From Polyangiaceae bacterium (GTDB taxonomy: Bacteria; Myxococcota_A; Polyangia; Polyangiales; Polyangiaceae): DNA of 64,000 nt. The notes below the pieces were generated by a model. It saw only the letters and a program-made list of their open reading frames with translations, searched no databases and had not been told where the DNA came from. Below are positions 16,017 through 39,844 of this stretch, in pieces (within the stretch, counting starts at the first letter, position 1; every line of letters begins with the position of its first letter). The position numbers and the translations under genes are program-made. Location of the stretch: assembly GCA_025937835.1 (NCBI GenBank), contig JAICQO010000014.1:1-64000 (forward strand), written 5' to 3'.

Positions 16017-19000
16017 ATGCATTCCCAAGAGATCCGCAGGGCGCTCGGAAAACTTCAGGTCGAACCGGACGCAGAGCAAGCGTGGGCGACGCTGACTTCA
16101 GAAATCACGACCAACGACGGTGACCTATCGCGAGAAGATCTCGTGCGGCTGCTCGATGCGGCGCGCGAGGAGCACGCGCGGCGCGGTGAATGGCACGCCG
16201 TCGCGCGCTTGCTCGAGGTCTCGGTCAAAGTAGCCGAACACACGCCGCACGAGGCAGACCTCGTCGCCGCGCAAGCGCGCGTGCTCGCCGAAGAGCTGTA
16301 CGACGACGAGGGGGCGGCGATCCTCTACCTGCGGCTGCTCGAGCTCCGGCCCAACGAGGCCGGCGCGCAGTCGGCGATTCAGGAGAGCGAGGGGCGGCGC
16401 GGTCGCTACCAGGAGCTCGTGAAGAGCTATCTGGCCGAAGCCGAAGAGGCGAGCGACGACATCTACAAGAGCTCGATGTTGATGCGCGCCTCGGAGATGG
16501 AGGTTCGCTACGGCGGCAGCGGCATCAACCTGGAGCAGGCGATCGATCGCGTGGAGCAGGCCGTGCGCCTCGACGCCACCAACGCCCGCGCCAGCCGCTT
16601 GCTCGAGCACCTCTACCGCCGCTCTTCGCGCTGGGAAGAGCTCGCGCGCGTGCTGGAACGCCTCGCCGATCAGAGCGAGCAGCCGCGCGAGCGCGTCGCC
16701 GCGGGTACGCGCCTGGCGCGCGTCTACGCCCAGCACCTCGACGACAAGGAGCGCGCAGCGCGCGCCTACGATCGCGTGCTGCGCGACGAGCCCGGCTACG
16801 CCGAAGCCACGAGCTTCCTGTCCGAGTTCTACGGCGCCGAGAACCGCTGGGCGGAGCTCGTGGGGCTGTACGAGCGCGAGCTGAAGTCGAAGGAGATGCA
16901 CGAGAGCGAGCGCCTGGGCGACATGCTCCAGATCGCGATGCTCTACTGGAAGAAGCTCGAGCGCCCGCAGGACGCCGAGCCCTGGTTCGAGCGCGTGCGC
17001 AAGGTCGAGCCGACCAACGAGGTGATGCTCGGTTTCTACCGCGAGTACTGCACCGCGCTCGGCGACGAAGCACGGTTGATGGACGTGCTCCAGGGCGCCC
17101 AGCGCGCGCTGCGCGACGGCTCGAAGGACAAGGCCAGAGTCGCGCAAGAGATCGCGCGGCTCGCGGAAGGCCAGGCCAACGCGCAGAAGGCGATCGAACA
17201 GTACAAGTCCGTCCTGCGTCAGGATCCCGATCACGACGAGGCGCGCGAGCGTCTGAAGACGCTCTACAAGCAGACCCAGGGCTACAACGCGCTGGTCGAG
17301 CTGTTGCGCGTGCAGCTCGAGCGCACGCCGCTCGATCAGTACCAGACGCGGCTCGGCATCTTGCGCGAGGTCGCGACCGTGTACCGGCAGTACCAGAAGA
17401 GCGACGCCGCGTTGCTCTCGGTGCTGAGTCAGATCGTCCAGCTCGACGACAAGATCGACGAGCACGATCTGGAGGAGCTGCGCGAGATCGTGCAGCTCTA
17501 CGAGCGGCTCGGCCGTCACCGCGACCTCATCACCCACCAGTTGAAGCTGGCCGAGGTGACGCCCGACGTGGAAGAGAAGCGGGAGCTCTACCGCTCTGCC
17601 GGCCGACGCTGGCTCGAGCAGTTCTCGAACGCGCAGAACGCGACCGAGGCCTTCGAGAAGCTGCTCAAGGTGGCGCCGTCGGACGAAGAAGCCAGGCGGC
17701 GTCTCGACGAGCTGTACCGGAAGCGCCGCGCCTGGAACCAGCTTTACGAGCTGTACGCGTCCGAGCTCGCCGACAAGCAGGGCTCGGAGCGGCTGACCTT
17801 GATGCGGGAGATGGCGCAGCTCGCCCAGGAGCGCCTGAACAAGCCGCAAGACGCGATCACTCTTTACCGGCAGATCCTCGAGATCGATCCGGATCGAGTG
17901 GAGATCCTGGACTCGCTCGAGAAGCACGCCGAGCGCTCCAAGGATTGGGCGACGCTGGCGGACGCGCTCGAGCGCCGCGCGGCGATCGCGAGCGACGATC
18001 AATCGCGGCTCGCCACGCTGCAGAAGCTCGGCTCGGTTTACTCCGAGCACCTCGGCAACGCGGAGTCGAGCGTGCGGACCTGGCGGCGTGTGCTCGAGCT
18101 GTCGCCCGGGCACAGCCGCGCCTTGCGGGTGCTGCGCGAAGCGTACCTCGCGAGCGAGAACTACGACGGGCTCGAGCAGCTCTACGCCTCGCAGAACGAC
18201 TGGGAGGGCCTGGCCGAGGTGCTGAGCAACGCGGCAGATCGCGCCAAGGAGGCGCCCGCGCGCATCGAGCTCAGCTACCGCGCCGCGCGCGTGCTCGAGC
18301 AGAACCTGAACCAGCCGGACCGTGCCTTCCGCTCGTACGAGCGGATCTTGCTGGCCGATCCGGGCGACGTGAAGGCTGCTCGCGCGCTGATCCCGCTCTA
18401 CGAAAAGGACGAGAAGTGGTCGCGCCTGCCGGCGCTGTACGAGCTGCTCCTCGAAAAGTCGGACGATCCCGAGGAAAAGCTCGCGCTGTACACGCGCCTC
18501 GTGGAGGTCACCGGCAGGCGGCTCGGCGATCGCCGGAGCGCGGCGGGCTACGCGCGGCGCGCCTACGAGCTTGCGCCCGACGAACCGAGCGCGCTCGTGT
18601 TGTTCGAAGACGCGTCGCGCGCGGCGGGCGCGTGGGAGTCGTTCGTCGAGGCGCTCTCGGCACGCCTGCCCGCGGCGGATGCCACGCCCGTACCACGCGA
18701 AGAGCCGTCGGCCGCGACTGCCGCGCAGACCCCGGTCACGGAAGGGGAGCCGAAGAAGAGGGGCAAGAAGAAGAAGCGCGGCCCTGAGCCGTCGTCGCCC
18801 TCGGCTTCCGTCCCGCCGCCGCCTCCGGCGGAGGGGCGTGACCTGGAGCGCCGCGCGCTCGAGCTGAAGCTCGCCCGCGTCTACTCCGACGAGCTCAACC
18901 GCGTCGACGACGCCGTGGCGATCTACAAGCGATTGCTCGAGCGCGACCCGAGCGACGCCGAGGTCACGGCCGTGCTCGAGAACATCCTGCGCACGGGAGA

Positions 19001-22000
19001 TCGCCGCGACGATTTGCGTTGGTTCTTCGAGCTGCGCGTCGAAAGCGCGGGAGACGCGGGCGAAAAGCGCCGGCTGCTCGCGGAGTACGCGGGGCTCGAG
19101 GAAGAGGCGTTCGAGGCGCCCGAGCGCGCGGTGAACCTGTACCGCCGCATGCTCGAGCTCGACGCGGGCGACCGCACGGCGCTCACGACGCTACCCAGGC
19201 TCTTGCTCGCCCAGGGCGACGCGGCGGGAGCGGCCGAGGTGATCGCGCAGCACCGAGATCAGCTCGTCGGCGAGGGCCGCGCCGAGCTCGAGGCGGAGCT
19301 CGCCGAGCTCTACCTCGAGCGCCTGAGCCGCCCGGAAGATGCGCTGATCAGCGCCATCGCGGCGCTCGGCTCGCCCGAGCGCGCCACGCGGGCGATGGTG
19401 GTGCTCGAGGCGCTCGTGCGCATCGACAGCGTGCGCGAGCGCGCCGCGTCGGTGCTGGCCGAGCGCTACGCGGAAGCCGGCGACGTCCGCAAAGAGGTGC
19501 AGGCGTTGGAGGTGATGCTGGCCGGCTCGAGCGATCCTGCCGAGCGCCGGATCTTGATTCAGCGGCTCACCGACGCCCACGAGACCAAGCTCTCGAGCTA
19601 CGGTAGCGCGCTCGACGTGCTCTTGCGCGCCGTCCGCGAGTTCCCGAGCGATCTCGAGCTCTGGACCCGCGCCGACAGCCTGGCGGTGTCGGCGGGGCGC
19701 CCGACCGATCTGGCCGAGGCGTTCCGCGAGGTGTTGCGTGCACCGCTCGACCGCGATCTCGAGATCGAGCTCTCCGAGCGCGCCGCGCACCTGTTCGAAG
19801 ACAAGCTCGGCGACCCGATCGGGGCGACGCCGTACCTCGAGCGCGTGCTCGGGCTCGAGCCGAGCAACGAGGCCGCGTTCCGCCGCCTGAAGGACATCCT
19901 GACCGCAGCGGAGCGCTGGGGTGAGCTCGAGGCGCTCTACGATCGGGCCGCGAACGCGACCGACGACACCACGCGTCGGATCGAGATGTTGGTCGAGGTC
20001 GCGCTGATCTGCGAAGAGATCATCGAGGACGCGGCCAAGGCCACCCGCTACTACGAGCGGATCGCGGCGATCGACCCGCTGCACGAGGGCACGAACCGGG
20101 CGCTCGATCGGCTCTACGTCGCGCAGCACAAGGACCAGGAGCTGTCGGCGTTGCTCGAGCGGCGGCTCGAGACGGCCGAGGGCGACGAGGCCTTCGAGCT
20201 CAAGCTGCGGCTGGCGCGGCTCAAGCTCGACCTGCACGAGCCCGACAAGGCCGTGAGCCACGTCGAAGACGTCCTCACCGCGCGCGTCGGCGACTACGAG
20301 GCGCGCGAGCTCGCGGAGCGCATGCTGGAGATCGGCGAGCTCCGGCAGCGCGCGGCCTCCATGCTCGAGCACGTCTACGAGGCGCGCGACGAAATTCGCG
20401 ATCTGGTGCGCGTGCTCGAGATCCGCCTCGAGGGCCTCGCCGAGCAGAAGACGCAGACGGCCGCGGACGAACGCCGCGAGCTCTTGCGCCGCATCGCGCA
20501 CCTGCGCGACGACCGGCTGCACGACGACGAGAGCTCGTTCGACGCCTTCGCGCGGCTCGTGCCGCTCGAGCCGGGCGACACCGAAGCGCGCCGCCGCTTG
20601 ATGGAGATCGGCCGCCGGCTCGGGACGCACGAGCGCGTCGCCCGCGTGCTCGCCCAAGCCGCGCAGAACACCGAGGATCCGGCGCTCCGCGGCGAGATCT
20701 TGATGCACGTCGCCGCCACCTACGACGAGCTCGTGGGCAACCGGAACGAAGCCGAGCGCGTGTACCGCGAGGTGCTCGACATCGACCGCAGCAACGCCGA
20801 CCTGACGCTGCCCGCCGCGCGTGCGCTCGAGCGCATCTACGTCGGGGCCGGCGACAACGCCAAGCTGGCCGAGATGCTCCGCATCGAGGTCGCGCTCGAG
20901 ATGGAGTCGGCCACGCGCCAGCGCATCCTGGGCCGCCTCGGCGACCTGTGCGAGCGCGAGCTCTACGACAACGACGGCGCGATCGCGGCCTGGAAGCAGC
21001 GGCTGGACGAGGCCGGTGACGACGAGGCCGCGCTGTCGGCGCTGGATCGCCTGTACGAGAAGACCGAGCGCTACCGCGACCTGGTCGAGGTCATGCGCCA
21101 GCGCGCCGAAATCGGCACCGACTCGATCTTGCGCCGCCGCTTGCTCGAGCGCATCGCCGAGGCGTTCTGGAAGCGGCTCGAATCCACCTCGGAGGCGATC
21201 GACGCCTACCGCGCGCTGATCAGCGAGTACGGGCCCGACGGCGACTCGCTGCGCGCGCTCGAGACCCTGTTCGAATCCTCGGAGCGCTGGGAGGATCTCG
21301 GTGAGACCCTCGAGCAGCACATCGAGATCGCGAGCTCCGACGCCGAGCGGCTCGAGCTCCTGGCCCGGCTCGGGGACATCAAGCGCGAGCGCTTGCTCGA
21401 CGTGCCGTCGGCGCTCTCGGTATACCGGAGAGCGCTCCTGCTCGACAGCCGTCACGCGGCGAGCCGCGCCGCGCTCGACAAGCTGCTCGACTCGCCCGAG
21501 GCGCAGTCGCGGCGCGAGGCGGCCCAGGTGCTGCGGCCGATCCTCGAGGGCGAGGGCGCCTACGAGCAGCTGTTGCGCGTGCTCGAGATCGAGATCGAGA
21601 CCTCGGAAGACGCGCTCGAGAAGCTCGGCAGTCTGGAGCTCGCGCTCAACGTGGCGGAGCGCTCGCTGTCCGACTCGAACCGCGCGTTCGGCTACTCCGA
21701 GCGGGCCGTGCGCACCGCGGTCGGCCACACCGACCTCCTGCCGTGGTTCGGACACGTCGAGCGCCTGGCCAACGTGACCGGCCGGCACCGAGAGCACGTC
21801 ACGCTGCTGAGCGACGTCGTGCCGAACATCTTCGACGGGCAGGTCCAGCTCGACGTCACGTTGAAGATCGCCGATCTGGCCCGTCAGAAGCTGTCCGATC
21901 GCGATCTGGCGCGCGACTACTACAAGAAGGCGCTCGAGATCCGCGCCGACGAGCGCCACGCGCTGGCAGCGCTCGAAGTGCTCTACGAAGAGAGCGGCGA

Positions 22001-25000
22001 CGCCAAGAACCTGCTCGAGGTGCTCGAGCGGCGCGCCGACATCGCCGAGACCGACGACGACAAGAAGCAGCTGATGTTCCGGCGTGCGCGGCTGCTGTCG
22101 GACGTGCTCGACGACAAGCCGCAGGCCATCGAGGTCTACCAGGTGATCCTGGACCTCGGGCTCGAGCGGCAGGCGCTCGACGCGCTCGAGACGCTGTACA
22201 CCGGCGCCGGTCGCTGGGCGGACCTGATCACGCTCTACGAGCGACAGCTCGACGCCCGCCTCGGCTCGGCCGCCGATCTACACGTCAGCATCGGCCGCGT
22301 CGCGGCGCAGAAACAGGGCGACATCCCGCTCGCCTTCGAGCAGCTCGAGGAGGCGCTCAAGCTGGATCGCCAGCACACGGGCGCGATCGCCGAGCTCGAG
22401 CGGCTGCTTCTCGAAGCCCCCGAGCTCGAGCAGCGAGCCCACGCCGCGGCGCTCCTCGAGCCCGTGTACCTGGCTCGCGCCGACTACACGCGCGTGATGG
22501 ACACGATCCGCGCTCGCCTCGAGTACGCGCCCGGCCTCGAGGAGCGGCGCGAGCTGCTCACGCGCCTCGCTCAGCTCTACGAAGAGCAGAAAGAGGATTA
22601 CCGCGCCGCGCTCGAGACGATCGCCCGACTGTTGCACGAGGACGTCAGCGACGAATCCACCGTTCACGAGCTCGAGCGCCTGGCCAAGGTGGCCGGCGCC
22701 GAGGATCGGCTGGCGGAGATCTACGCCACGGAGCTCGGCACGATCGACGCCGACGACGCGCACAGCGCGACGCTCGCGCGCCGCACCGGCGAGCTGTTCG
22801 ACTCCCTCGGCAAGCCCGACCGCGCGCTCGAGTTCTACCGCCGTGCGCTCGAGTTCTCGCCCGAGAGCCGCTCGCTGTTCGACTCGATCGACGCGATCTT
22901 GAAGCGCCTTTCGCGCCACGAAGAGCGGGTCAAGCTCTACCGCGGCGCGCTCGAGCACCGCTTCGATCCGGCGGATCGGCTCGCGACCCTGCACACCATC
23001 GCCGCGCTCGAGCGGCGTGAGCTCGGCCGGGCCGACGACGCGATCGAGACCTACCGCGCCGCGCTCGAGGTCGAGGACATGGATCCTCGCACGCTCGACG
23101 CCCTGGCCGAGCTGTACACGGAGCGCGGTCGCTGGGAAGACCTGGCCGAGCTCTACCTGAGGCGCGCCGAGACGGCGAGCGACGCCAACGTGGCGGCCGA
23201 TTACCGCTTGTCACTCGCCAAGCTACACGTGCAGACCGGGCAGCTCGAGCGCGCCGTCGATCAGCTGGAAGAGATCGTGCGCGTGCTGCCGAGCCACGCG
23301 CAGGCCATCGCCGAGCTCGAGTCGCTGCGTAAGAGCGAGCCGCTGCGCGAGCGGGTGGTCGACATCCTGCGGCCGCTGTACGAAGCCGCCGACGACTGGC
23401 GACGCCAGATCACGCTCAACGAGGATCGCTTCACGCTCGCCAATGACGCCGCCGGTCGAGTGGCGGTGCTGCGCGAGACCAGCGAGCTCTGGGAGCGGCG
23501 CGGCAACGACGAGAAACGCGCGCGCCGCGCGATGGAAGCTGCCGTTCGCATCGATCCCGAGGACGGCGACGTGCGCCGTGAGTACGAGCGGTTGACCGAG
23601 CAGACCCACTCCTGGGATCAGTTCACCGAGGTCTACGAGGAGGTCCTGGCCGAGAACCCGGAGCTCGCGAGCCGCCGCGACATGCTGCAGATCCTGGCCG
23701 AGGTGCACGATGCGCGGCGCAACGATCCGCGCCGCTCGCTCGAGGCCTACGATCGACTGCGCGCGACCGACGAGACCGACATCGGCCCGCTCGAGAAGAT
23801 GGAGGCGCTGGCGACGTTGCTCAGCGACTGGCCGACCCTGGTGCGCGTCCTGACGGCCAAGGCCGACTTGCTGCTCGACGACGGCGAGCGGGCCAGCGTC
23901 TGGCGCCGCGTGGGCGAAGCCAAGCGCGACATGCTCGACGACGCCGATGGCGCGATCCAGGCCTACGAGCGCGCGCTCGACCTCGATCCGGAGAGCGCCT
24001 TCACGCTGGATTGCTTGATCGAGCTGTACGAGGGCCGGCGCGACGCGCCGCGCCTGGTGGAGCTCTATCAGCGCCGCGTCGAGCTCGCGGAGGACGACGA
24101 CGCGGATCTCAAGTTCACCCTGCTCACGCTGGCGGCCGCGGCCTACGAGAAGGAGCTTTCGGATCGCACCCGGGCCATCGAAGCGCTGGTGCAGGCCCTT
24201 TCCGTGCGCCCCGGCGACGAGGGCGTGCGCGACAGCCTGAACCGGCTGTACCGCGCCGAGGCGATGTGGCCGGAGCTGCTCGACAGCCTGCGCGGGCAGG
24301 CCGAGGCCACGAGCGAGCCCACGGCGCGCGCCGCTTTGCGCCGCGAGATCGGCGACATCCTCGCCGACAAGCTGAGCAGCCTGGAGGAGGCGCTCGAGTC
24401 GTATCGCCTCGCGCTCGATGACGCGCCCGACGAGATGGCGATCGTCACCAAGGTGCGCACGCTGGGCGAGGGCCACGAGGATCTGCGCTCGCCGGTCGCG
24501 GCCGTGCTGGTACCGGTGTTGAAGCGCACCGAGCGCTGGGAAGCTCTGGCCGAGGTGCTCGAGCTCCGGCTCAGCGTCGAGACCGACCCCGGCGATCGGA
24601 CTCAGACGCTGGTGGCGATGGCGGAGGTGCTGGAGACGCGCCTCGGTCGCGTCACGGACGCCGAGACTGCGCTGCTTCGCGCGCTCGCGGAGCGGCCCGA
24701 CGCCGAGGACCTGCACCGCGAGGTGACGCGACTCGCCTCCGGCTCCGGCAGCTGGTCGCGCTACGCGGACGTGCTCACCGAGCGCGCTCAGGCCACCTTC
24801 GAGCCCGAGGTCGTCAAGGACCTCTACGTGCGCCTGGCCAAGGTCGCAGAAGACAAGCTCGGCGACGACCGGCGCGCCGTCGAAGGCTACGTGAAGGCCA
24901 TCGAGCAATCGGGCGACCAGCCCGAGCTCCTCGACGCGCTGGATCGGCTGTACCAGCGGCTCGCCGATCACACCGCGCTCGCCGACGTGCTCGAGCGGCG

Positions 25001-27398
25001 CGTTTCGGTCGAGGACTCGGACAAGCGCCAGGCCGAGCTGTTCTACCGCCTGGCCGTGCTCCAGAACGACCAGTTCAAGGAGAACGCTCGGGCGCTCGGC
25101 TCGCTGCGCACTGCCATCGAGCGCGATCCCGAGCACGAGGCTGCCGTCTCGGAGCTCGAGAAGCTCACTCGGGAGCCGGAGCTGTTCGAGGAAGCAGCCG
25201 AGGTGCTCGAGAGCGTGTACCGCACGCGCAGGCACACCGACCGCCTGGCGAGCCTGTACCAGCAGCGCGTCGAACACGCGGACACGACCGGCGCCAAGGT
25301 CGAGATGCAGAAGGCGCTGGCGCGCGTGCTCGAGGACGACGTGCGCGACCCGCGCGGGGCTCAGCGCGTGATCGAAGCGAGCCTGCTCACGTCCCCCGGC
25401 GATCACGAGCTCGTGGACGAGCTCGAGCGCCTGGCGGGCATCACCGGCGAGTGGAGCTCGGCCGGCGCGGCCCTCGAGAAGGCGCTCGAACAGCACGCGG
25501 AGCTCGAGACCGAGGCGGCCGTGGAGCTGTGCGTGCGACTCTCGGGCTGGCTCAAGGATCGGGCCTCCGATCCGGCCGGTGCCGAGCGCGTCCTGGCGCG
25601 GGCCCTGCGCTACGACGCCGAGAACGACGACGTGTTGGCTCGTCTCGAGGCGCTGCAGACCGGCCCGGGCCGCGAGCGCGACCTGTTCGAGACGATCCGG
25701 CGCCGCGCCAAGCTCCAGCTCGACGACCACAAGCGTGAACGGCTCTACCAGCAGGCCAAGGAGATCGCCGACGGCCTCGGCGACCACCAGGCGGCCGAAG
25801 CCGTGCTGCGCGAGCTGCTGTCGCTCGACGACATGAACGGCTGGGCCCTCGACAGCCTGACCGTGCTGCGCGAGCTCGCCGGTGACTACAAGGAGACCTT
25901 CGAGCTTTTGGTTAGACAGAGCGAGCTGTCGACCGATCCGGCAAGCACGCGCGAGCTCCAGCGCAAGGCCGCCGGAATCGCCCGCGACCGGCTCGAGGAC
26001 ACGCCGCGCGCGATCGAGCTCTTCGAGCAGCTGTTCGAGGACGACTCGTCCGACGACACCGCGGCCACGGCGCTGCGCTCGCTGTACGCCGAGCAAGGCC
26101 GTTTCCAGGACCTGGGCCGGCTGATCGAGCGCCTGATCGACGTCGCGACCTCGCCCGGCGAACGCAGCAAGCTCCGCATCGAGCTCGCCAAGCTGAGCGA
26201 GGAAAAGTTCGCGTCGCTCGATACGTCCATCGATCAGCTGCGCGCGGTGCTCGAGGACGAGCCCGGCCACGAGCTCGCCGTGGTGCACCTGAGCGAGCTC
26301 TACGAGCGCACCCAGCGCGACGAAGAGCTCGCGTCGCTGCTCTCGACACAGATCGAGGACGCTCAGGCCCGGAACGACCTGGACGCGGAGCTCCGCTTCC
26401 AGACGCGGCTCGGCGATATCTACGAGGCGCGCCTGCGTGACCGTTCGCGCGCCATCGAGACCTATCGCAGCGTGCTCGAGCGCAAGCCCGACCATCAGGG
26501 TGCGCTCGAGGCTCTCTCACGCTTGCTCACGGCCGACGGCCGGCTCGACGAGGCGACCGAGGTCATGGAGAAGCTGCTCGCGCTGGCTAGCGGAGACGAA
26601 GCCGTTCGCCGTTCGCTGGAGCTCGCGGGCGTCTACGAGAAGCAGGGCCAGAACGACAAGGCCGCACACGCGCTCGAGGTCGGGCTCAAGGCAGACCGCC
26701 GCAACCTGGAGATCAGAAAGCGGCTGCGCCCGCTGTTCCAGGCGGCGGCGGATTGGCAGGCCCTGGCAGAGCTCTCGTCCGAGGAGGCGGAGTTCGCCGA
26801 GGCTCCCGAGGCCGCCGTGCAGCTCCTGCGCCAAGCCGCGACGATCCACGCCGAGAAGCGCGACGATCTGTTCAAGGCCGCGGAGCTGCTCGAGCGCGCG
26901 ACCCAGCTCAAGCCGAACGACCGCGAGCTCTTGCTCGAGCTCTGCGACGTCTACGGCAAGAGCGGGCGCGGCCGCGACGCGGTGCGGGTCCTCGAGCGAG
27001 TCGTGGAGAGCTACGGTCAGAAGCGCACCCGCGAGCTCGGCGAAATCCACCGCCGGCTCGCCAACGCCTACATCGCCGATGGCGAGGTCCAGCGCGCGCT
27101 GGAAGAGCTCGACAAGGCCTTCCGCATCGAGCCCGGAAATCTGCAGGTCCTCACCTTGCTGGGCGACGTGGCGATCCAGGCCAAGGACTACAAGAAGGCG
27201 CAGCAGATGTACCGCGCGCTCTTGCTCCAGAAGCTCGACGAGGGCGCGCCCATCAGCAAGAGCCAGGTCTTCCTCCGTCTCGGCGACATTCACGAGGCGA
27301 TCGGCGAAACCCCCAAGGCGATTCAGATGTACGAGCGCGCCGTGCAGACGGACGGCCTGGAAGAAGCCAAGGAACGCCTGAAAACCCTGAAGAAGTAG
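16017..27398 (+). CDS. Giant TPR/helical-repeat protein (3793 residues)
   Basis: One uninterrupted 11.4-kb frame with ATG at 16017 and GAGGA just upstream. There is no signal peptide and no transmembrane segment, so the protein should be cytosolic, of about 420 kDa. Nearly all of it is an imperfect repeat of about 70-75 residues, each holding two TPR-like hairpins. The recurring theme is R-W-x-x-L, then L-E-x-R, A-x-L-x-E-x-x-L, A-I-x-x-Y-x-x-x-L, D-P and L-x-x-L-Y; roughly fifty units fit the length. A Lys/Pro-rich hinge breaks the solenoid at about residues 888-941 (KKRGKKKKRGPEP, then PPPPP). The C-terminal 120 residues (IEPGNLQVLTLLGDVAIQAK) are the most canonical TPRs. It precedes MlaE and MlaF-like genes by 46 bases. 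A scaffold role is inferred; no named homologue is claimed. Confidence 0.92.
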   Translation: MHSQEIRRALGKLQVEPDAEQAWATLTSEITTNDGDLSREDLVRLLDAAREEHARRGEWHAVARLLEVSVKVAEHTPHEADLVAAQARVLAEELYDDEGAAILYLRLLELRPNEAGAQSAIQESEGRRGRYQELVKSYLAEAEEASDDIYKSSMLMRASEMEVRYGGSGINLEQAIDRVEQAVRLDATNARASRLLEHLYRRSSRWEELARVLERLADQSEQPRERVAAGTRLARVYAQHLDDKERAARAYDRVLRDEPGYAEATSFLSEFYGAENRWAELVGLYERELKSKEMHESERLGDMLQIAMLYWKKLERPQDAEPWFERVRKVEPTNEVMLGFYREYCTALGDEARLMDVLQGAQRALRDGSKDKARVAQEIARLAEGQANAQKAIEQYKSVLRQDPDHDEARERLKTLYKQTQGYNALVELLRVQLERTPLDQYQTRLGILREVATVYRQYQKSDAALLSVLSQIVQLDDKIDEHDLEELREIVQLYERLGRHRDLITHQLKLAEVTPDVEEKRELYRSAGRRWLEQFSNAQNATEAFEKLLKVAPSDEEARRRLDELYRKRRAWNQLYELYASELADKQGSERLTLMREMAQLAQERLNKPQDAITLYRQILEIDPDRVEILDSLEKHAERSKDWATLADALERRAAIASDDQSRLATLQKLGSVYSEHLGNAESSVRTWRRVLELSPGHSRALRVLREAYLASENYDGLEQLYASQNDWEGLAEVLSNAADRAKEAPARIELSYRAARVLEQNLNQPDRAFRSYERILLADPGDVKAARALIPLYEKDEKWSRLPALYELLLEKSDDPEEKLALYTRLVEVTGRRLGDRRSAAGYARRAYELAPDEPSALVLFEDASRAAGAWESFVEALSARLPAADATPVPREEPSAATAAQTPVTEGEPKKRGKKKKRGPEPSSPSASVPPPPPAEGRDLERRALELKLARVYSDELNRVDDAVAIYKRLLERDPSDAEVTAVLENILRTGDRRDDLRWFFELRVESAGDAGEKRRLLAEYAGLEEEAFEAPERAVNLYRRMLELDAGDRTALTTLPRLLLAQGDAAGAAEVIAQHRDQLVGEGRAELEAELAELYLERLSRPEDALISAIAALGSPERATRAMVVLEALVRIDSVRERAASVLAERYAEAGDVRKEVQALEVMLAGSSDPAERRILIQRLTDAHETKLSSYGSALDVLLRAVREFPSDLELWTRADSLAVSAGRPTDLAEAFREVLRAPLDRDLEIELSERAAHLFEDKLGDPIGATPYLERVLGLEPSNEAAFRRLKDILTAAERWGELEALYDRAANATDDTTRRIEMLVEVALICEEIIEDAAKATRYYERIAAIDPLHEGTNRALDRLYVAQHKDQELSALLERRLETAEGDEAFELKLRLARLKLDLHEPDKAVSHVEDVLTARVGDYEARELAERMLEIGELRQRAASMLEHVYEARDEIRDLVRVLEIRLEGLAEQKTQTAADERRELLRRIAHLRDDRLHDDESSFDAFARLVPLEPGDTEARRRLMEIGRRLGTHERVARVLAQAAQNTEDPALRGEILMHVAATYDELVGNRNEAERVYREVLDIDRSNADLTLPAARALERIYVGAGDNAKLAEMLRIEVALEMESATRQRILGRLGDLCERELYDNDGAIAAWKQRLDEAGDDEAALSALDRLYEKTERYRDLVEVMRQRAEIGTDSILRRRLLERIAEAFWKRLESTSEAIDAYRALISEYGPDGDSLRALETLFESSERWEDLGETLEQHIEIASSDAERLELLARLGDIKRERLLDVPSALSVYRRALLLDSRHAASRAALDKLLDSPEAQSRREAAQVLRPILEGEGAYEQLLRVLEIEIETSEDALEKLGSLELALNVAERSLSDSNRAFGYSERAVRTAVGHTDLLPWFGHVERLANVTGRHREHVTLLSDVVPNIFDGQVQLDVTLKIADLARQKLSDRDLARDYYKKALEIRADERHALAALEVLYEESGDAKNLLEVLERRADIAETDDDKKQLMFRRARLLSDVLDDKPQAIEVYQVILDLGLERQALDALETLYTGAGRWADLITLYERQLDARLGSAADLHVSIGRVAAQKQGDIPLAFEQLEEALKLDRQHTGAIAELERLLLEAPELEQRAHAAALLEPVYLARADYTRVMDTIRARLEYAPGLEERRELLTRLAQLYEEQKEDYRAALETIARLLHEDVSDESTVHELERLAKVAGAEDRLAEIYATELGTIDADDAHSATLARRTGELFDSLGKPDRALEFYRRALEFSPESRSLFDSIDAILKRLSRHEERVKLYRGALEHRFDPADRLATLHTIAALERRELGRADDAIETYRAALEVEDMDPRTLDALAELYTERGRWEDLAELYLRRAETASDANVAADYRLSLAKLHVQTGQLERAVDQLEEIVRVLPSHAQAIAELESLRKSEPLRERVVDILRPLYEAADDWRRQITLNEDRFTLANDAAGRVAVLRETSELWERRGNDEKRARRAMEAAVRIDPEDGDVRREYERLTEQTHSWDQFTEVYEEVLAENPELASRRDMLQILAEVHDARRNDPRRSLEAYDRLRATDETDIGPLEKMEALATLLSDWPTLVRVLTAKADLLLDDGERASVWRRVGEAKRDMLDDADGAIQAYERALDLDPESAFTLDCLIELYEGRRDAPRLVELYQRRVELAEDDDADLKFTLLTLAAAAYEKELSDRTRAIEALVQALSVRPGDEGVRDSLNRLYRAEAMWPELLDSLRGQAEATSEPTARAALRREIGDILADKLSSLEEALESYRLALDDAPDEMAIVTKVRTLGEGHEDLRSPVAAVLVPVLKRTERWEALAEVLELRLSVETDPGDRTQTLVAMAEVLETRLGRVTDAETALLRALAERPDAEDLHREVTRLASGSGSWSRYADVLTERAQATFEPEVVKDLYVRLAKVAEDKLGDDRRAVEGYVKAIEQSGDQPELLDALDRLYQRLADHTALADVLERRVSVEDSDKRQAELFYRLAVLQNDQFKENARALGSLRTAIERDPEHEAAVSELEKLTREPELFEEAAEVLESVYRTRRHTDRLASLYQQRVEHADTTGAKVEMQKALARVLEDDVRDPRGAQRVIEASLLTSPGDHELVDELERLAGITGEWSSAGAALEKALEQHAELETEAAVELCVRLSGWLKDRASDPAGAERVLARALRYDAENDDVLARLEALQTGPGRERDLFETIRRRAKLQLDDHKRERLYQQAKEIADGLGDHQAAEAVLRELLSLDDMNGWALDSLTVLRELAGDYKETFELLVRQSELSTDPASTRELQRKAAGIARDRLEDTPRAIELFEQLFEDDSSDDTAATALRSLYAEQGRFQDLGRLIERLIDVATSPGERSKLRIELAKLSEEKFASLDTSIDQLRAVLEDEPGHELAVVHLSELYERTQRDEELASLLSTQIEDAQARNDLDAELRFQTRLGDIYEARLRDRSRAIETYRSVLERKPDHQGALEALSRLLTADGRLDEATEVMEKLLALASGDEAVRRSLELAGVYEKQGQNDKAAHALEVGLKADRRNLEIRKRLRPLFQAAADWQALAELSSEEAEFAEAPEAAVQLLRQAATIHAEKRDDLFKAAELLERATQLKPNDRELLLELCDVYGKSGRGRDAVRVLERVVESYGQKRTRELGEIHRRLANAYIADGEVQRALEELDKAFRIEPGNLQVLTLLGDVAIQAKDYKKAQQMYRALLLQKLDEGAPISKSQVFLRLGDIHEAIGETPKAIQMYERAVQTDGLEEAKERLKTLKK

Positions 27399-27444: not shown

Positions 27445-28323
27445 ATGACGAGTCAGGATCCGCTGCCGGCGCGGCGCTCGACGCTGCCCTACAACCCGCG
27501 CTCCGAATACAGGCGGCGCGCGGGGTTCCTGGGCTCGATCGGCCGCGGCGCAATCGCCTGGGTGTACGGCGCCTCGGCGCTGTTCGGCACGCTGGGGCTG
27601 GCGCTGACTTCCTTCGCGACGCCGGGCCGGGCGGCGGCGCGCACGGTGCGAGCCGTGACCTTATCGCAGATCTTGTTCACGGGCGTGCAGGCGGTCTCGC
27701 TGGTGAGCGTGATCGGTCTGTTGATCGGCGCGACGATCGTGATCCAGACCAGCCTGATGGTGCCGGGCGCCGACGGCGACCTGCTCGGCAAGATCGTGGT
27801 CGCGGTGGTCCTGCGCGAGCTCTCGCCGCTGATCACGGCGATCATCGTGGCGGGTCGCTCCGGGACGGCTATCGCCACCGAGCTCGGCAACATGAAGGTG
27901 AGCGGCGAGATCCTGGCCTTGACCTCGCTCGGCATCGATACGCCGCGCTTCATCGTCTGGCCGCGGCTCGTCGCGTCGGTGCTGAGCGTCGTGGCGTTGA
28001 TGGTGTATTTCAGCTTCGTGGCGGTGATGGCCTCCGCGGTGCTCGGCCAGGCCGTGCTCGGTCCGAGCCCGGCCGAGCTGCGCTCCGGGATAGCGCGCGC
28101 GCTGACGCTGCACGACCTGGTGTTGTTCGTGGCCAAGGGCGTGGGACTCGGCACGATCGTGGGCTGGATCGCCTGCCATTACGGGCTCTTGGTGAAGAGC
28201 TCGCCGACCGAGGTGCCGAAGCAGGCCAGCGCCGCCGTGGTGCGGATGCTGCTCGGCGCCGTGATGTACGACTTTGCGCTGACCGTCGTGTTCTACTGGT
28301 TGGTCGGACCGCCGCTCCGCTGA
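27445..28323 (+). CDS. MlaE-family ABC transporter permease
   Basis: A 292-residue inner-membrane permease of the MlaE/YrbE family, which moves phospholipids or other lipids between inner and outer membrane with MCE-domain partners. After a polar N-terminus come an amphipathic helix and about five membrane spans. Family signatures are the conserved core VVLRELSPLITAIIVAGRSG, then TAIATELGNMKVSGEILAL and the late VKSSPTEVPKQAS turn. Length is typical. It lies between the giant TPR gene and an MlaF-like ATPase on the same strand. No MCE (MlaD-like) or MlaC/MlaB gene is in the window, although MlaEF is normally accompanied by an MCE protein. Confidence 0.92.
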   Translation: MTSQDPLPARRSTLPYNPRSEYRRRAGFLGSIGRGAIAWVYGASALFGTLGLALTSFATPGRAAARTVRAVTLSQILFTGVQAVSLVSVIGLLIGATIVIQTSLMVPGADGDLLGKIVVAVVLRELSPLITAIIVAGRSGTAIATELGNMKVSGEILALTSLGIDTPRFIVWPRLVASVLSVVALMVYFSFVAVMASAVLGQAVLGPSPAELRSGIARALTLHDLVLFVAKGVGLGTIVGWIACHYGLLVKSSPTEVPKQASAAVVRMLLGAVMYDFALTVVFYWLVGPPLR

Positions 28324-28330
28324 GGGACCC

Positions 28331-29014
28331 TTGAAACTCGGCCTCGAACTCGACCACGTCAGCTTTCGGTACGGCGATCTGTGGGTGTTTCGCGAGCTCA
28401 CGCACACGCTGCCGATGGGCGGAAATCTGGTGGTGATCGGCGAAAACGGCGTCGGAAAGTCCACGCTGCTCTACCTGTGCGCGGGCCTGACGCAGGCCAG
28501 CACGGGCAACGTCTATCTGTCGGGGCACGCGCCGAACCCGACCCGGCCGAGCGAGCTGTTCCGAAACGGCGTGCGCCGCGGCTTCGTGTTCTACGCCGGC
28601 GGCCTGCTCTCCAACGCCACGGCGCTCGGCAACGTCACTCTCGCCCTGCGCTACCACGCCGACGTGCTCGGCCTGAGCGAGTCACAGATCGACAGGCGGG
28701 CGCGCGATCAGCTCACCGAGCTACGCGTCGCGCAGACTGATTTCCACGCGCTGCCGGCGCACCTGTCGGTCGGGGTGCGGCGACGGGTCAGCCTGGCGCG
28801 AGCGCTGGCGCTAACCCCGAATTTCCTGTTCCTGGACGATCCCGACTCGAACCTGGATACCCAGACCAAGCACCTGGTCTACGAGCTGCTCGAGCAGAAG
28901 CGTGACGACCCCGCCGTCACGCTGCTGGTCACGACCACGAGCCCGGAGCTGGTGGAGCGGCTCGGCGTGCCGCCCCACGAGCTCGCGCACGGCTACCTCA
29001 TGGCCCGGATTTGA
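28331..29014 (+). CDS. MlaF-like ABC ATPase with degenerate catalytic motifs
   Basis: A 227-residue nucleotide-binding subunit paired with the MlaE permease. Walker A is intact (GENGVGKST, 37-45), but other motifs deviate. The Q-loop Gln of VFQ is Tyr (FVFYAGG, Y88), the signature is LSVGV (145-149) instead of LSGGQ, the Walker B Glu is Asp (FLFLDDPD, D170), and the H-loop His is Thr (LLVTTTS, T202). E. coli MlaF keeps all of these. The protein may bind ATP but hydrolyse it poorly. It starts at TTG 28331 behind GAGGGA that overlaps the mlaE stop. Its 3' end overlaps the convergent FKBP gene by 17 bases. Confidence 0.88.
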   Translation: MKLGLELDHVSFRYGDLWVFRELTHTLPMGGNLVVIGENGVGKSTLLYLCAGLTQASTGNVYLSGHAPNPTRPSELFRNGVRRGFVFYAGGLLSNATALGNVTLALRYHADVLGLSESQIDRRARDQLTELRVAQTDFHALPAHLSVGVRRRVSLARALALTPNFLFLDDPDSNLDTQTKHLVYELLEQKRDDPAVTLLVTTTSPELVERLGVPPHELAHGYLMARI

Positions 29015-29945
29015 TCTGGAGCAGCTCGATGTCGAAGACCAGCGTTCCCGAAGGCGCGCCGGGGCGCGTCGGCTTGTCGCCGTAGGCGAGATCTCCCGGG
29101 ATCCAGAAGCGGGCCTTCTCTCCCTCGACCATCAGCTGCACGCCCTCGGTCCAGCCCTTGATCACGCCGTTCAGGTTGAAGCTCGAGGGTTGGCCGCGCT
29201 GCACCGACGAGTCGAACATCTTTCCGTCGGTGGTCCAGCCGGAGTAGTGCACCGTGACCCGGTCGGTGGCCTTCGGGTGGGCCTTGCCCGTGCCCTTCTT
29301 CAGCACGCGGTAGGCGAGGCCCGAGCCCGTGCGCTTCGCCGTCGCGGGTGGAGCCTTGACGTCTTCGGGTGCCTTCGGCGCCGCGAGGATCTCGAGCAGC
29401 TCGACGTCGAAGGTCAGGTCCCCCGCGGGCGCGCCCATGCGCGGCGTGTCGCCGTAAGCGAGCTTGCCCGGGATCCACAGCCGGCGCTTCTCGCCGACGA
29501 CCATCAGCTTCAGCGCTTCCGTCCAGCCGGGGATCACCTGTGTCACGCCGAAGCTCGCGGGTTCGCCGCGCTCCACGGACGAGTCGAACATCTTTCCGTC
29601 TTTGGTCCAGCCCGTGTAGTGGACCTTGACCTGGTCGGCGTCGGTGGGGTGCTCCTTCGACTTGCCCGGCGTGAGCACCTTGGTCACGAGGCCCGACTCG
29701 GTTTTCTTCGCGTCGGCCGGGGGTTTGGCCACGTCCTCCGGCGCCGGGATGCCCTTCGGCGCTTCTGCGCTCGGCGCCGCGGTCTCCGCCGGCGCGGGGG
29801 TGGTGGCCGCCGCGGGAGCTTCGCTCGCGGCCGCCGCCGGGGTGGCTGCGGGCTCGGCAGTGGCCGAACCGCTGGGCTCGGCGAGCTTCTTCTGACAGGC
29901 GGGGATCGCGAACGCGAGGATCAGGACGGGCAGGTAGGTCCGCAT
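28998..29945 (-). CDS. Tandem-domain FKBP-type peptidyl-prolyl isomerase lipoprotein
   Basis: A 315-residue exported folding catalyst. Signal with lipobox AIPAC (C17), then a long Ala/Pro/Glu-rich spacer (20-75), then two FKBP domains. Each has the VKVHYTGW or VTVHYSGW strand, DGKMFDSSV, the IPGWTE or IKGWTE active-site loop, G-E-K-R/A with WIPG, LAYGD and the terminal FDVELLEI or FDIELLQI strand. The domains are clearly duplicates of each other. It should accelerate proline isomerisation in secreted or outer-membrane proteins. ATG at 29945 was chosen because the longer frame adds a non-signal-like N-terminus. It is monocistronic and convergent with the MlaF-like gene. Confidence 0.92.
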   Translation of the reverse strand: MRTYLPVLILAFAIPACQKKLAEPSGSATAEPAATPAAAASEAPAAATTPAPAETAAPSAEAPKGIPAPEDVAKPPADAKKTESGLVTKVLTPGKSKEHPTDADQVKVHYTGWTKDGKMFDSSVERGEPASFGVTQVIPGWTEALKLMVVGEKRRLWIPGKLAYGDTPRMGAPAGDLTFDVELLEILAAPKAPEDVKAPPATAKRTGSGLAYRVLKKGTGKAHPKATDRVTVHYSGWTTDGKMFDSSVQRGQPSSFNLNGVIKGWTEGVQLMVEGEKARFWIPGDLAYGDKPTRPGAPSGTLVFDIELLQIKSGP

Positions 29946-30127
29946 GGTGGTGGGCGATTTGTTGCGGAACCACGGCGAAGGCGCAAGGCCCGTCTCCGGC
30001 TCGTCGAAACGGTCCGGCCGTCCCCCGTGATTTTGCCGTGAATTCGGCGGGGCCCCTCCCCACGCGCTCGCTCTCTTTTCGTCCGAATTTTCCGCCGATC
30101 TCGGCAAGTTCCTAGCCGCTTGTCGCT

Positions 30128-35330: not shown

Positions 35331-36506
35331 TCAGGCCCGCATCGCCTCGATCGGCGACACCTTCGAGGCGCGGATCGCCGGGAAGAAGCCGCCGAGCACG
35401 CCCATCGCCGTGCCGGCGATCAGCGAGATCACGAAGGTTGCAGGATCGGGGCTGAAGCTAAAGGTGATTTCCTGCCAGGTCGCGAAGTTCATCATCGAGA
35501 TCTTCGTGAAGCTGAGGAGCGAGGCGCAGACCAGGCCGATCGCGCCGCCGAGCAGCGCCAGCACCGCCGACTCCACCAGGAACGAGAACAGGATCGCCGC
35601 GCGCGAGAAGCCCAGCGCCCGCAGCGTGCCGATCTCGCGCTTGCGCTGCGAAACGGCCGCGTACATCGTGATCATCGCGCCGATCATCGCGCCGAACGAG
35701 GAGAAGAAGGCGATCACCGCGCCGATCGCCGTCACGAAGATGCTCGTGCCCTCGGACTGGCGGCGGTAGTAGTCGTCCTCGCGAAAGCTCTCGAGGCCGA
35801 GCTGCTTGTCGCTCTCGACGTAGGTCTTGAAGCCCTCGAATTTGCTCGACGACTCGAGCCGCACCGTCACCGAGGAGACCAGGCCCTCGCGGCCGAACGA
35901 CGTGCGCACGGTGTCGATGTCCGCCCAGATCTCGGATTCGAAGCTCGAGCCGCCCGCCTCGAAGATCCCGACCACGTTCACGGGTCGGTTCTTCTTCAGC
36001 TCGAAGCGCTGGTTCAGGTCCACGCCCTCGAAACGACCCGCGATGCCCTTGCCGATCATCACCTCGTCCGTGCCGGGCGTCGGCGGGCGCCCGGAGATCA
36101 CCCGCACGTCGGGCCGAACCTTGAGCACCTTGTCGCCGGGTACCCCGCGCACCTGCACGTTCGAGATTTGAGAGTCGTCGGCGCCGAGCTTGGCCAGGGT
36201 GATCACGATCACCGCCTCGCCGACCGTGAGCGGAGCGCCGGTCTCGTCCTTCTTCACGCCGGGGGCGGCCTGGATCAGGCTGACGCGCTGGGTTTCGATG
36301 CCGCTCGCGAGCTCGGTGTCCGAGCCCTTGCGCAGGACGATCGCGTTGTCGTCGCGGCCGGCGCTCACCAGCGTCTTCTGGATACCGGTCGACAGCATCA
36401 GCGCTGCCGCCAGCACGAACACGACGAGGCCGACACCGAGCGCGGTGGCGATGGTCGTGGTGCGTCGAACGAACAGACTCCGAACGTTGTAGCTCAGCGG
36501 AATCAT
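35331..36506 (-). CDS. MacB/FtsX-type ABC transporter permease (second permease)
   Basis: A 391-residue inner-membrane protein with the MacB/LolC topology: one span near residues 15-42 (TTTIATALGVGLVVFVLAAAL), a periplasmic domain of about 200 residues (45-245), then three C-terminal spans with the FtsX core (MYAAVSQRKREIGTLRALGF, ESAVLALLGGAIGLVCASLL) and the terminal FPAIRASKVSPIEAMRA. It is the last gene of a four-gene minus-strand operon with a membrane-fusion protein, an ATPase and another permease. It probably pairs with the neighbouring permease as a heterodimer. Confidence 0.9.
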   Translation of the reverse strand: MIPLSYNVRSLFVRRTTTIATALGVGLVVFVLAAALMLSTGIQKTLVSAGRDDNAIVLRKGSDTELASGIETQRVSLIQAAPGVKKDETGAPLTVGEAVIVITLAKLGADDSQISNVQVRGVPGDKVLKVRPDVRVISGRPPTPGTDEVMIGKGIAGRFEGVDLNQRFELKKNRPVNVVGIFEAGGSSFESEIWADIDTVRTSFGREGLVSSVTVRLESSSKFEGFKTYVESDKQLGLESFREDDYYRRQSEGTSIFVTAIGAVIAFFSSFGAMIGAMITMYAAVSQRKREIGTLRALGFSRAAILFSFLVESAVLALLGGAIGLVCASLLSFTKISMMNFATWQEITFSFSPDPATFVISLIAGTAMGVLGGFFPAIRASKVSPIEAMRA

Positions 36507-36519
36507 TTCCGGACCTCTT

Positions 36520-37686
36520 TCAGCCGACGCGGCGCAACGAGTCCACGACCTTGAGCTTCGACGCCCGGTAAGCCGGGATCGCCGAGGCGAGCAGGCTGGC
36601 GCCGAGCGCGAGCCCCATCGACAGCGCGGCCAGCGACGGCTGCACGCGGAAATACGGGAACATGGCGCCCATGTTCTCCTCCAGGAAGCGCCCGAGGCCG
36701 TTCTGGACCAGCGGGTACGCGAGCCCGACGCCGAGCAAGCCGCCGAGCAGGCCGATCACCATCGACTCGCCGATCACGAAGATCACGATGTGGCGGGGGA
36801 CGAAGCCGATCGCGCGGAGCACGCCATACTCACCGGTGCGGTCGCGGACACCCATGGCGATCGTGTTGCCGAGGATCAGCATCATGATCAGCAGGATGAC
36901 CACCGAGACCACGTCGATGGCCCGCAAGATCGCCGACAGCATGCCGAGGAACGAGGCCTGCATGGCCCGCTCGCTCATGCTCAGCGTCTGAATGTCACGC
37001 TCCGAGAACTTCTGATCGATGGTGCGGCAGATGGCCGCTGACTGACCGGGATCGGCGACGCGCGCCACGATCCAACCCACCTGATCCTTGCGCTGGGCGG
37101 GCAAGGAGTCGTTCAGGTACTTCCAGTGGAACCAGAGCGTGGAGCGATCGACCGAGGCGCGCTTCGACGTGTAAATGCCGGCGATGTGGAACTCCCAATC
37201 GCCCGGGTAGATGGTGCCGCGCAGCGTGACCTTGTCGCCGATCTTCCAGCCCTTTTTCTTGGCCAGCGCGTCGCCGACGAGGGCGCCGCGGCGGTCCTGC
37301 TTCCAGGCCTCGATCTGCTCGGGCGGAGCTTCTATCTCGCGGTACACGTCCAGCAAGTCGTTCGGTTCGACGGCGATGGTCGCGAAGAAGTCGCTCTCGT
37401 CTTTCGGGTCTTTGGCGCCGAACCAGTTGGCGTAGCTGATGCCCGTGACGCCCGGCGTGCTGCGGATCTCCTCCGCGTAGCGGAGCGGCAGCGTCATGAT
37501 GAAGGTGATCTTGTGCCGGATGCCGATCCGGTCGCTGGCGCTCTGTTCTTGGGCGGCCGTCCAGGACCAGTTCATGGTCCGGAGCGCGATGAACATGATC
37601 AGCGCGGCTGCCACGCCGAGCGCTGTGAGCAACGTGCGCAGCCGGTTGCGCGCGACGTTCTTGATGGCGATGGTTGCGAGCCTCAC
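36520..37686 (-). CDS. MacB/FtsX-type ABC transporter permease (first permease)
   Basis: A 388-residue permease of the same family as its neighbour: N-terminal span (about 17-40, LLTALGVAAALIMFIALRT), periplasmic domain (45-265, containing ISYANWFGAKDPKDESDF), then three spans with MGVRDRTGEYGVLRAIGFVP and GESMVIGLLGGLLGVGLAYPL, ending IPAYRASKLKVVDSLRRVG. Sequence is clearly distinct from the second permease, supporting a heterodimer rather than a recent duplication. It lies 7 bases after the ATPase gene and 13 bases before the second permease. Confidence 0.9.
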   Translation of the reverse strand: MRLATIAIKNVARNRLRTLLTALGVAAALIMFIALRTMNWSWTAAQEQSASDRIGIRHKITFIMTLPLRYAEEIRSTPGVTGISYANWFGAKDPKDESDFFATIAVEPNDLLDVYREIEAPPEQIEAWKQDRRGALVGDALAKKKGWKIGDKVTLRGTIYPGDWEFHIAGIYTSKRASVDRSTLWFHWKYLNDSLPAQRKDQVGWIVARVADPGQSAAICRTIDQKFSERDIQTLSMSERAMQASFLGMLSAILRAIDVVSVVILLIMMLILGNTIAMGVRDRTGEYGVLRAIGFVPRHIVIFVIGESMVIGLLGGLLGVGLAYPLVQNGLGRFLEENMGAMFPYFRVQPSLAALSMGLALGASLLASAIPAYRASKLKVVDSLRRVG

Positions 37687-37693
37687 GCTGCCC

Positions 37694-38386
37694 TCACACC
37701 AGGTTGCCCTTGTCGAGGCGGCGGACGATCGAGGCGCGTTCGGCGGCGGCCGGATCGTGGGTCACCATCACGATCGTCTTCTTGAACTCCTTGTTCAGCC
37801 GCTCGAGCAAGTTGAGGATGTCGTTGGCGCTGTCGCGATCGAGGTCACCGGTGGGCTCGTCGGCCACGATGATCTTCGGGTCCGTGACGATCGCGCGCGC
37901 GATCGTGACGCGCTGCTCCTGACCGCCCGAGAGCTGGCGGGGCAGGTGGTCCATGCGGTCTTTCAGGCCGACCACCTCGAGCGCGATCTCGGCGCGCTTG
38001 CGGCGCTCGGCGGCCGGCAGCTTCGCGAGCAGCAGCGGGAGCTCGACGTTCTCGACGGCCTTCAACACCGGCAGCAAGTTGTAGGTCTGGAACACGAAGC
38101 CGATCGTCGAGGCGCGCCAGGCAGCGCGCTGCCCCTCGCTCATCTCGCCGAGGTTCGAGCCGGCCACGATCAGCTTGCCGCTGGTCGGGGCGTCGAGGCC
38201 GGCGATCAGGTTCAACAGGGTGGACTTGCCGGAGCCGCTCGGCCCCATCAGCGCCTCGAAGGCCCCCTCGGCGATGTCGAGGTCCAGGCTCTTCAGCACC
38301 TCGAGCGGCTCCTTGCCGCGGTAGAAGGTTTTACCCACGCCTTGCAGCCGGATCATCGATTCGGCGCCGTTCGTCGCTTCACTCAT
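37694..38386 (-). CDS. ABC transporter ATPase (MacB/LolD-like)
   Basis: A 230-residue ATP-hydrolysing subunit. Walker A is GPSGSGKST, the Q-loop is IGFVFQTYNLLPVLKAVENV, the signature is QLSGGQEQRVTIARAI, Walker B is KIIVADEPTGDLD, and the H-loop is VTHD. The NLLP and EPTGDLD features place it in the LolD/MacB group. All catalytic residues are present, in contrast to the MlaF-like ATPase. ATG 38386 was chosen over a longer frame because it has GCGAGGA upstream. It follows the membrane-fusion protein gene by 87 bases. Confidence 0.95.
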   Translation of the reverse strand: MSEATNGAESMIRLQGVGKTFYRGKEPLEVLKSLDLDIAEGAFEALMGPSGSGKSTLLNLIAGLDAPTSGKLIVAGSNLGEMSEGQRAAWRASTIGFVFQTYNLLPVLKAVENVELPLLLAKLPAAERRKRAEIALEVVGLKDRMDHLPRQLSGGQEQRVTIARAIVTDPKIIVADEPTGDLDRDSANDILNLLERLNKEFKKTIVMVTHDPAAAERASIVRRLDKGNLV

Positions 38387-38473
38387 GCCGTCCTCGCTCG
38401 TTTTCCAGAGTCCAGTGGGCCCAGTCATAGTGCCGAGGCTCGAAAATCGCGAGCCTCGCTAGGACACGATTCG

Positions 38474-39718: not shown

Positions 39719-39844
39719 GCCGCCGTCCGCGCCGTGGCGCGAATCGCTAGCACGCCCGCCGGCAGCTGTCTTCCGCGTCTCACCCCCCGTACGTTGCGCT
39801 CGCGCCAAAATCCGGCGCTCTGGCTAGCCGATTTTTTCGCCGAC

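What the first reader, a model, noticed from the sequence alone, without database searches (positions are those of the whole stretch)
28331..29014. MlaF-like ATPase with substitutions in four catalytic motifs
Walker A is intact, but the Q-loop Gln is Tyr88, the signature is LSVGV, the Walker B Glu is Asp170 and the H-switch His is Thr202. Known ABC biochemistry predicts severe loss of hydrolysis from the last two changes. This is not a frameshifted pseudogene: the frame is clean and codon use matches the neighbours. It may be a non-hydrolysing structural NBD, or may need a second active ATPase.
Basis: partly seen in the sequence, partly recalled or inferred. Interest (0 to 1): 0.72.

Follow-up and report, generated by a model that had tools for sequence, protein, structure and literature searches.

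The report
Lipid pump with disabled ATPase motor
A two-gene bacterial membrane-lipid transporter of the Mla type has kept its ATP-binding pocket but has lost, as a fixed feature of a whole lineage, the residues that split ATP and also its usual periplasmic partner gene, so it probably moves or gates lipids in a way the textbook pump does not.

Summary
The ORF at 28331-29014 is real and selected (dN/dS 0.05-0.27). With the MlaE permease at 27445-28323 it forms a dedicated pair, here 'MlaE*F*', present in the same 25 of 108 genomes of its family and absent from the rest. Walker A Lys, Walker B Asp, D-loop Asp and the signature Ser and second Gly are invariant (25/25). The catalytic Glu is Asp in 25/25; the H-switch His is Asn/Thr/Gly in 24/24 readable. 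The Q-loop Gln survives in 16/25 and is missing in the window. LSxG alone is weak evidence. A sister lineage (6 genomes) has the opposite damage: signature and D-loop Asp lost in 6/6, Glu kept in 5, His in 4, and it carries its own MCE gene directly downstream in 6/6. The MlaE*F* genomes have no such MCE gene and no excess of MCE genes. Two intact MlaF ATPases exist elsewhere in the genome. Best reading: an MCE-less Mla-type transporter under selection for ATP binding rather than fast hydrolysis, possibly an ATP-gated lipid facilitator. Slow catalysis by Asp, or mixed dimers with a canonical MlaF, remain open. New variant of a known kind.

The parts
28331..29014 (+). MlaF* : ABC NBD (227 aa, TTG start)
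   Evidence: only in-frame start after the upstream stop
27445..28323 (+). MlaE* : MlaE-type permease (292 aa), ends 7 bases before MlaF*
   Evidence: PF02405 5.5e-50; AF2 fold matches solved MlaE/YrbE chains, all 16 hits at E<=0.001; helix order IF-TM1-TM2-CH-TM3-PH-TM4-TM5 read by me from the DSSP line
28439..28465 (+). Walker A GENGVGKST (residues 37-45), intact
   Evidence: Lys43 25/25
28592..28594 (+). Q-loop position 88, Tyr (Gln in 16 of 25 orthologues)
28763..28777 (+). signature LSVGV (residues 145-149); Ser and second Gly kept
28838..28840 (+). Walker B catalytic position 170, Asp instead of Glu (25 of 25 orthologues)
28937..28939 (+). H-switch position 203, Thr instead of His (Asn 18, Thr 5, Gly 1 of 24)

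Best explanation
MlaE* and MlaF* form a dedicated Mla-type inner-membrane lipid transporter (inferred as MlaE2F2) that has no MCE partner gene of its own and has lost the two residues that drive fast ATP hydrolysis. ATP binding and the ATP sandwich remain under selection (Walker A, Walker B Asp, signature Ser/Gly, D-loop Asp); hydrolysis does not. Shown: conservation, pairing, selection, absence of a local or dedicated MCE gene, predicted folds. Inferred: both composite sites of a homodimer are degenerate, so ATP acts mainly as a ligand that closes or holds the NBDs, and MlaE* works as an ATP-gated lipid facilitator or slow floppase in the inner membrane rather than a fast pump.
For: 25/25 Glu->Asp, 0/24 His, Walker A Lys 25/25, D-loop Asp 25/25, signature Ser and second Gly 25/25. 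MlaE* and MlaF* occur in exactly the same 25 of 108 family genomes; same contig in 24, MlaE* directly upstream in 23 (G130 in reversed order with a gap; G113 on another contig). dN/dS 0.05-0.27 in 8 pairs. No dedicated MCE: PF02470 counts 3.20 (25 genomes) vs 3.20 (83 others), p 0.59; the sister lineage's MCE matches in 6/6 of its own genomes and 0/25 of these. MlaE* keeps the R97/E98/D198/K205 equivalents (25/25) of the E. coli lipid site (PMC7790496 passages). The sister lineage lost other catalytic elements while keeping Walker A Lys and Walker B Asp 6/6, so the clade as a whole seems not to need fast hydrolysis. In E. coli MlaF E170Q cuts ATPase by about 80% and fails in vivo (PMC7784689, PMC7367683 passages).
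Against: No activity data. Asp in place of Glu can hydrolyse slowly (PMC7756269 passages). The homodimer is assumed from E. coli MlaFE. An MCE protein encoded elsewhere could still serve the pair: the genome has three. Gln is kept in 16/25, so the Q-loop is still under selection in many members.
Confidence: 0.5

Rival explanations
1. Slow but true ATPase: Asp170 (perhaps helped by the near-invariant Asp172 and by Asn/Thr203) activates water, and the pair is an ordinary though slow ATP-driven Mla-type transporter.
For: Asp keeps the charge; degenerate sites with Asp hydrolyse slowly (PMC7756269). Asp172 is D in 24/25 and in 0/27 comparison NBDs. E170Q MlaF keeps about 20% ATPase (PMC7784689). 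Gln kept in 16/25.
Against: The same protein also lacks His in 24/24 readable members, and in the window's subgroup the Gln too; the sister lineage discards yet other catalytic parts.
Confidence: 0.27
2. MlaE*F* is one half of a mixed transporter: MlaF* pairs with a canonical MlaF (and MlaE* with a canonical MlaE), giving one active and one degenerate site as in TAP or TM287/288.
For: MlaF* lost the Walker B/His half and the sister lineage lost the signature/D-loop half, which resembles the two halves of heterodimeric ABC transporters; intact MlaF genes exist in the genome; own contig C2 holds two MlaF with one odd motif each, two MlaE and an MCE.
Against: MlaF* carries both a changed Walker B/His and a changed signature; in a mixed dimer these would fall in different sites. 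MlaF* and the sister MlaF** occur in no common genome. Canonical partners are encoded on other contigs.
Confidence: 0.17
3. Recent decay, pseudogene or sequencing error.
For: Q-loop Gln missing in 6 of 8 genus members suggests some relaxation there.
Against: Same Asp and lack of His across 12 genera, open frames, dN/dS 0.05-0.27, strict pairing with MlaE*.
Confidence: 0.02

Closest known systems
MlaFE of the E. coli/Acinetobacter/Pseudomonas MlaFEDB phospholipid transporter
   Same: MlaE fold and polar lipid-site residues; NBD fold; ATP-binding motifs; NBD gene next to an MlaE gene
   Different: No MlaD/MCE gene; NBD lacks catalytic Glu and His, has LSxG for LSGGM, and ends about 40 residues earlier, without the C-terminal extension that E. 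coli MlaF needs (227 vs 269 aa)
Sister lineage MlaE**-MlaF**-MCE** in six genomes of the same family (found here)
   Same: Closest relatives in both the MlaE and the NBD tree; also catalytically degenerate; also a short NBD (237-252 aa)
   Different: Keeps Glu (5/6) and His (4/6) but lost LSGGQ and the D-loop Asp (6/6); has an MCE gene directly downstream (6/6)
Degenerate NBD halves of heterodimeric ABC exporters (TAP1, MRP1 NBD1, TM287, Pdr5)
   Same: Walker B Glu changed (often to Asp), often with a changed H-loop
   Different: Those pair with a competent half; here no competent half is encoded with it
LolD/MacB/FtsE-type NBDs
   Same: Best structural matches of the NBD model (Z about 27-29, against 26.5 for MlaF)
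   Different: Partner is an MlaE permease, not LolCE/MacB/FtsX

Membership tests
MlaF (phospholipid ABC NBD) | Score over NCBIfam MlaF cut-off (NF008809, 441 bits) | tested here: not met
   77.7 bits; no own-genome NBD meets it either
MlaF (phospholipid ABC NBD) | Encoded with an MlaE-type permease | tested here: met
   24 of 25 on the same contig
MlaF (phospholipid ABC NBD) | Groups with canonical MlaF against other NBDs | tested here: inconclusive
   Placement changes with the row set: support 76 for the MlaF side; nearer two LolD-type rows at 89/74
MlaF (phospholipid ABC NBD) | Catalytic Glu, His, LSGG signature | tested here: not met
   0/25, 0/24 readable, 0/25
MlaF (phospholipid ABC NBD) | C-terminal extension (handshake) | tested here: not met
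   24 complete members measured 226-253 aa from the aligned start; model ends at E. coli residue 227 of 269
MlaE permease | PF02405 over cut-off and MlaE fold | tested here: met
   170.4 bits vs 22.5; Foldseek TMt 0.72-0.90 to solved MlaE/YrbE
MCE transport system | MCE-domain protein in the operon | tested here: not met
   no PF02470 in the flanking proteins scanned; own-genome MCE genes lie at C135, C2 and C8:92341, 64 kb away
Heterodimeric ABC transporter with one degenerate site | A competent partner NBD encoded with it | tested here: inconclusive
   no second NBD seen directly beside MlaF* in the gene listings around all 25, but not every neighbour was family-scanned and an unlinked partner is not excluded
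Functional ABC ATPase | ATP hydrolysis | not testable with these tools
   needs purified protein

The most novel reading that the evidence does not exclude
A naturally hydrolysis-free Mla-type transporter: ATP binding opens or closes an MlaE lipid path and phospholipid runs downhill through it, which would make it a natural version of the ATP-independent, forward-directed phospholipid flow reported for E. coli Mla components when hydrolysis is absent. Two sister lineages disabled the motor in opposite halves of the site.
Probability: 0.17. Interest if true: 0.85.

Novelty: new variant of a known kind. Interest (0 to 1): 0.6.

Why it matters
Which way Mla-type systems move phospholipid, and what ATP hydrolysis is for, is disputed: lipid passes from MlaD to MlaC without ATP, and hydrolysis has been reported to block that flow (review PMC10212509, passages). 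A selected lineage of Mla-type pairs without the catalytic residues is a natural test of whether such transporters can work by ATP binding alone. It also offers two sister lineages with complementary lesions, one with and one without an MCE partner.

Tried and rejected
Pseudogene/decay: rejected by conservation and dN/dS. A specific MCE partner: the C8:92341 MCE protein is family-wide, 98 of 108 genomes, so not specific. MlaF* with MlaF** as partners: never in one genome. Third conserved operon gene: neighbours differ between genera. My own early note that residue 202 is the H-switch (notes 1-2) was wrong and is corrected in a later note and. The tree held one mis-framed row (18% filled) and was redone. 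In one search rows L033 and L034 hit the same MlaE; corrected by direct translation. STAR_G146 (truncated NBD) was left out of the NBD trees (24 of 25 used). One search's MlaE search missed the copy in G113 and cut that in G130; one search found them. Papers: searches (open-access PMC only) listed no paper that by title or abstract start describes an MlaF with this degeneracy; I saw search listings, and passages only of PMC7756269, PMC7367683, PMC7784689, PMC7790496 and PMC10212509. The naming of TAP1 and TM287 as examples is partly recalled.

Full report
WHAT IS THERE. The ORF at 28331-29014 (227 aa, TTG) is the second gene of a tight pair: an MlaE-type permease at 27445-28323 ends 7 bases before it. 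I call the pair MlaE*F*; the names are mine. The NBD scores as a general ABC ATPase (PF00005, 75 bits) and under the cut-off of every NCBIfam model shown, 77.7 bits for MlaF. AF2 gives an ordinary NBD (pLDDT 94.4) whose best solved matches are MJ0796, YbbA, FtsE, MacB and LolD, with MlaF about 2 Z units below the top. The permease model (pLDDT 80.5, 12 sequences) matches solved MlaE/YrbE chains only: all 16 hits at E<=0.001. Downstream on the other strand is a double FKBP isomerase; upstream is a giant TPR ORF. No MCE gene is beside the pair.

ORTHOLOGUES. A profile of the NBD finds 25 members among 183 genomes of the order, 197 bits or more, the next match 153. In 317 genomes of the class the same 25 stand at 259 bits or more against 167 or less. 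A sample of 377 genomes of the phylum adds none, the next match being 167 bits. All 25 lie in the window's family, in 12 genera. The MlaE* profile finds 25 genomes at 226 bits or more among 108 family genomes, the same 25; the next five score 142-166. The two genes are on the same contig in 24, MlaE* directly upstream in 23; G130 has the reverse order with a gap of about 1.2 kb, G113 has them on two contigs.

MOTIFS. Final alignment of 25 MlaF*, 6 sister NBDs and 27 comparison NBDs (22 MlaF-like, 5 others): Walker A Lys 25/25; Walker B first Asp 25/25; D-loop Asp 25/25; signature Ser and second Gly 25/25 with V/L/A/F/H between; catalytic position Asp 25/25 (Glu 27/27 in comparison); H-switch Asn 18, Thr 5, Gly 1, one truncated (comparison His 25, Ser 1, Asn 1); Q-loop Gln 16, Glu 3, Tyr 2, Gly 2, Ser 1, Asp 1 (comparison Gln 27). 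Asp172 after the Pro is D in 24/25 and in 0/27 comparison rows. The H-switch position is 203: the stretch T197-G221 aligns without a gap to two intact own-genome MlaF. The comparison rows are among the best NBD matches, not a random sample. The 24 complete members measure 226-253 aa, so the C-terminal extension that E. coli MlaF needs (deletion fails to rescue; PMC7367683 passages) is absent.

SELECTION. Nei-Gojobori dN/dS (my script) in 8 pairs: 0.05, 0.12, 0.25, 0.22, 0.23, 0.11, 0.27, 0.18, with dS 0.49-1.18. The frame is complete in all but one contig-end copy. The clear Gln losses lie within the window's genus: 6 of 8 genus members lack it, two keep it; three members elsewhere have Glu there.

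SISTER LINEAGE. Weaker MlaE matches in G111, G112, G124 and G024 share MlaE* marks (RSGTAIATELG or close, a [TA]EIP loop where canonical MlaE has GGxxGVG). Their NBDs, and two more in G092 and G019 found by profile (6 of 317 class genomes), form one clade with MlaF* (99/90; 100/96 with three of them); the MlaE tree agrees (99), with long branches flagged. In these six: Walker A Lys and Walker B Asp 6/6, but signature Ser/Gly 0/6, D-loop Asp 0/6, Gln 0/6 (Glu 4, Ala 1, Asp 1), catalytic Glu 5/6 (Asp in G124), His 4/6 (Ala in G092 and G019). So the two lineages broke opposite halves of the composite site. Each of the six has an MCE gene directly downstream of the NBD; of the four next genes scanned, three match TPR models (one of them under the curated cut-offs) and one gives no hit; two genomes have Omp85-type genes upstream. 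That MCE family matches in these six plus two weak hits (51-52 bits) and in none of the 25 MlaE*F* genomes.

OTHER ATPASES IN THE GENOME. Five MlaE and three MCE genes. MlaF-like NBDs at C63:2330 and C49:5682 have all motifs; C2:111062 has Glu/His but LGDGL; C2:106033 has Glu and LSGGQ but Ser for His. So other Mla-type ATPases are available to the cell.

MECHANISM. Shown: a dedicated, selected pair with conserved ATP-binding and sandwich residues, no catalytic Glu or His, a conserved permease with the polar lipid-site residues (R, E, D, K equivalents 25/25; those of E. coli from PMC7790496 passages, where single Ala mutants had no phenotype, while R97E did in PMC7784689), a changed coupling helix (Glu at the Gln of the canonical TEQ in 25/25), and no dedicated MCE partner. 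Inferred: hydrolysis is strongly reduced (E170Q in E. coli leaves about 20% and fails in vivo; PMC7784689 and PMC7367683 passages); the dimer is symmetric; ATP acts as a ligand. An ATP-gated facilitator has precedent in a TAP D-loop mutant that became a nucleotide-gated facilitator (PMC7756269 passage). Rivals are a slow true ATPase and mixed dimers.

LIMITS. Presence/absence could suffer from incompleteness, but MlaE* and MlaF* were found by separate profiles. The NBD's deeper origin (MlaF or LolD-like) is not settled: support 76 for the MlaF side, 89/74 for grouping with LolD-type rows. PF02470 counts may miss divergent MCE domains.

Noticed in passing
window 16017-27398 (+): 3793-aa TPR ORF ending 46 bases before MlaE*; a similar ORF flanks the pair in 9 of the 12 regions first read (8 same-genus genomes and G013), and TPR proteins follow the MCE gene in the sister operon.
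   Followed up: partly
G000:C2:106033-112173 (L054): Two MlaF-like NBDs with one odd motif each (His->Ser; signature LGDGL), two MlaE and one MCE gene: possibly a heterodimeric MCE transporter with one degenerate site.
   Followed up: partly
L232, L233 (G111, G112): Omp85-POTRA gene upstream of MlaE**-MlaF**-MCE** (a weak DUF4390 match lies between them in G111): may be an outer-membrane-linked MCE operon.
   Followed up: partly
window 28998-30107 (-): Two-domain FKBP isomerase whose 3' end overlaps the MlaF* 3' end by 17 bases.
   Followed up: no
G000:C8:92341 (L051:9224-10696): 490-aa MCE protein on the same contig, found in 98 of 108 family genomes, between a CAP-domain gene and a GH11 gene.
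   Followed up: partly
window 37694-38428 (-): LolD/MacB-like NBD among neighbours on the same strand (35331-39808) that recur together near the pair in G005 and G006.
   Followed up: no
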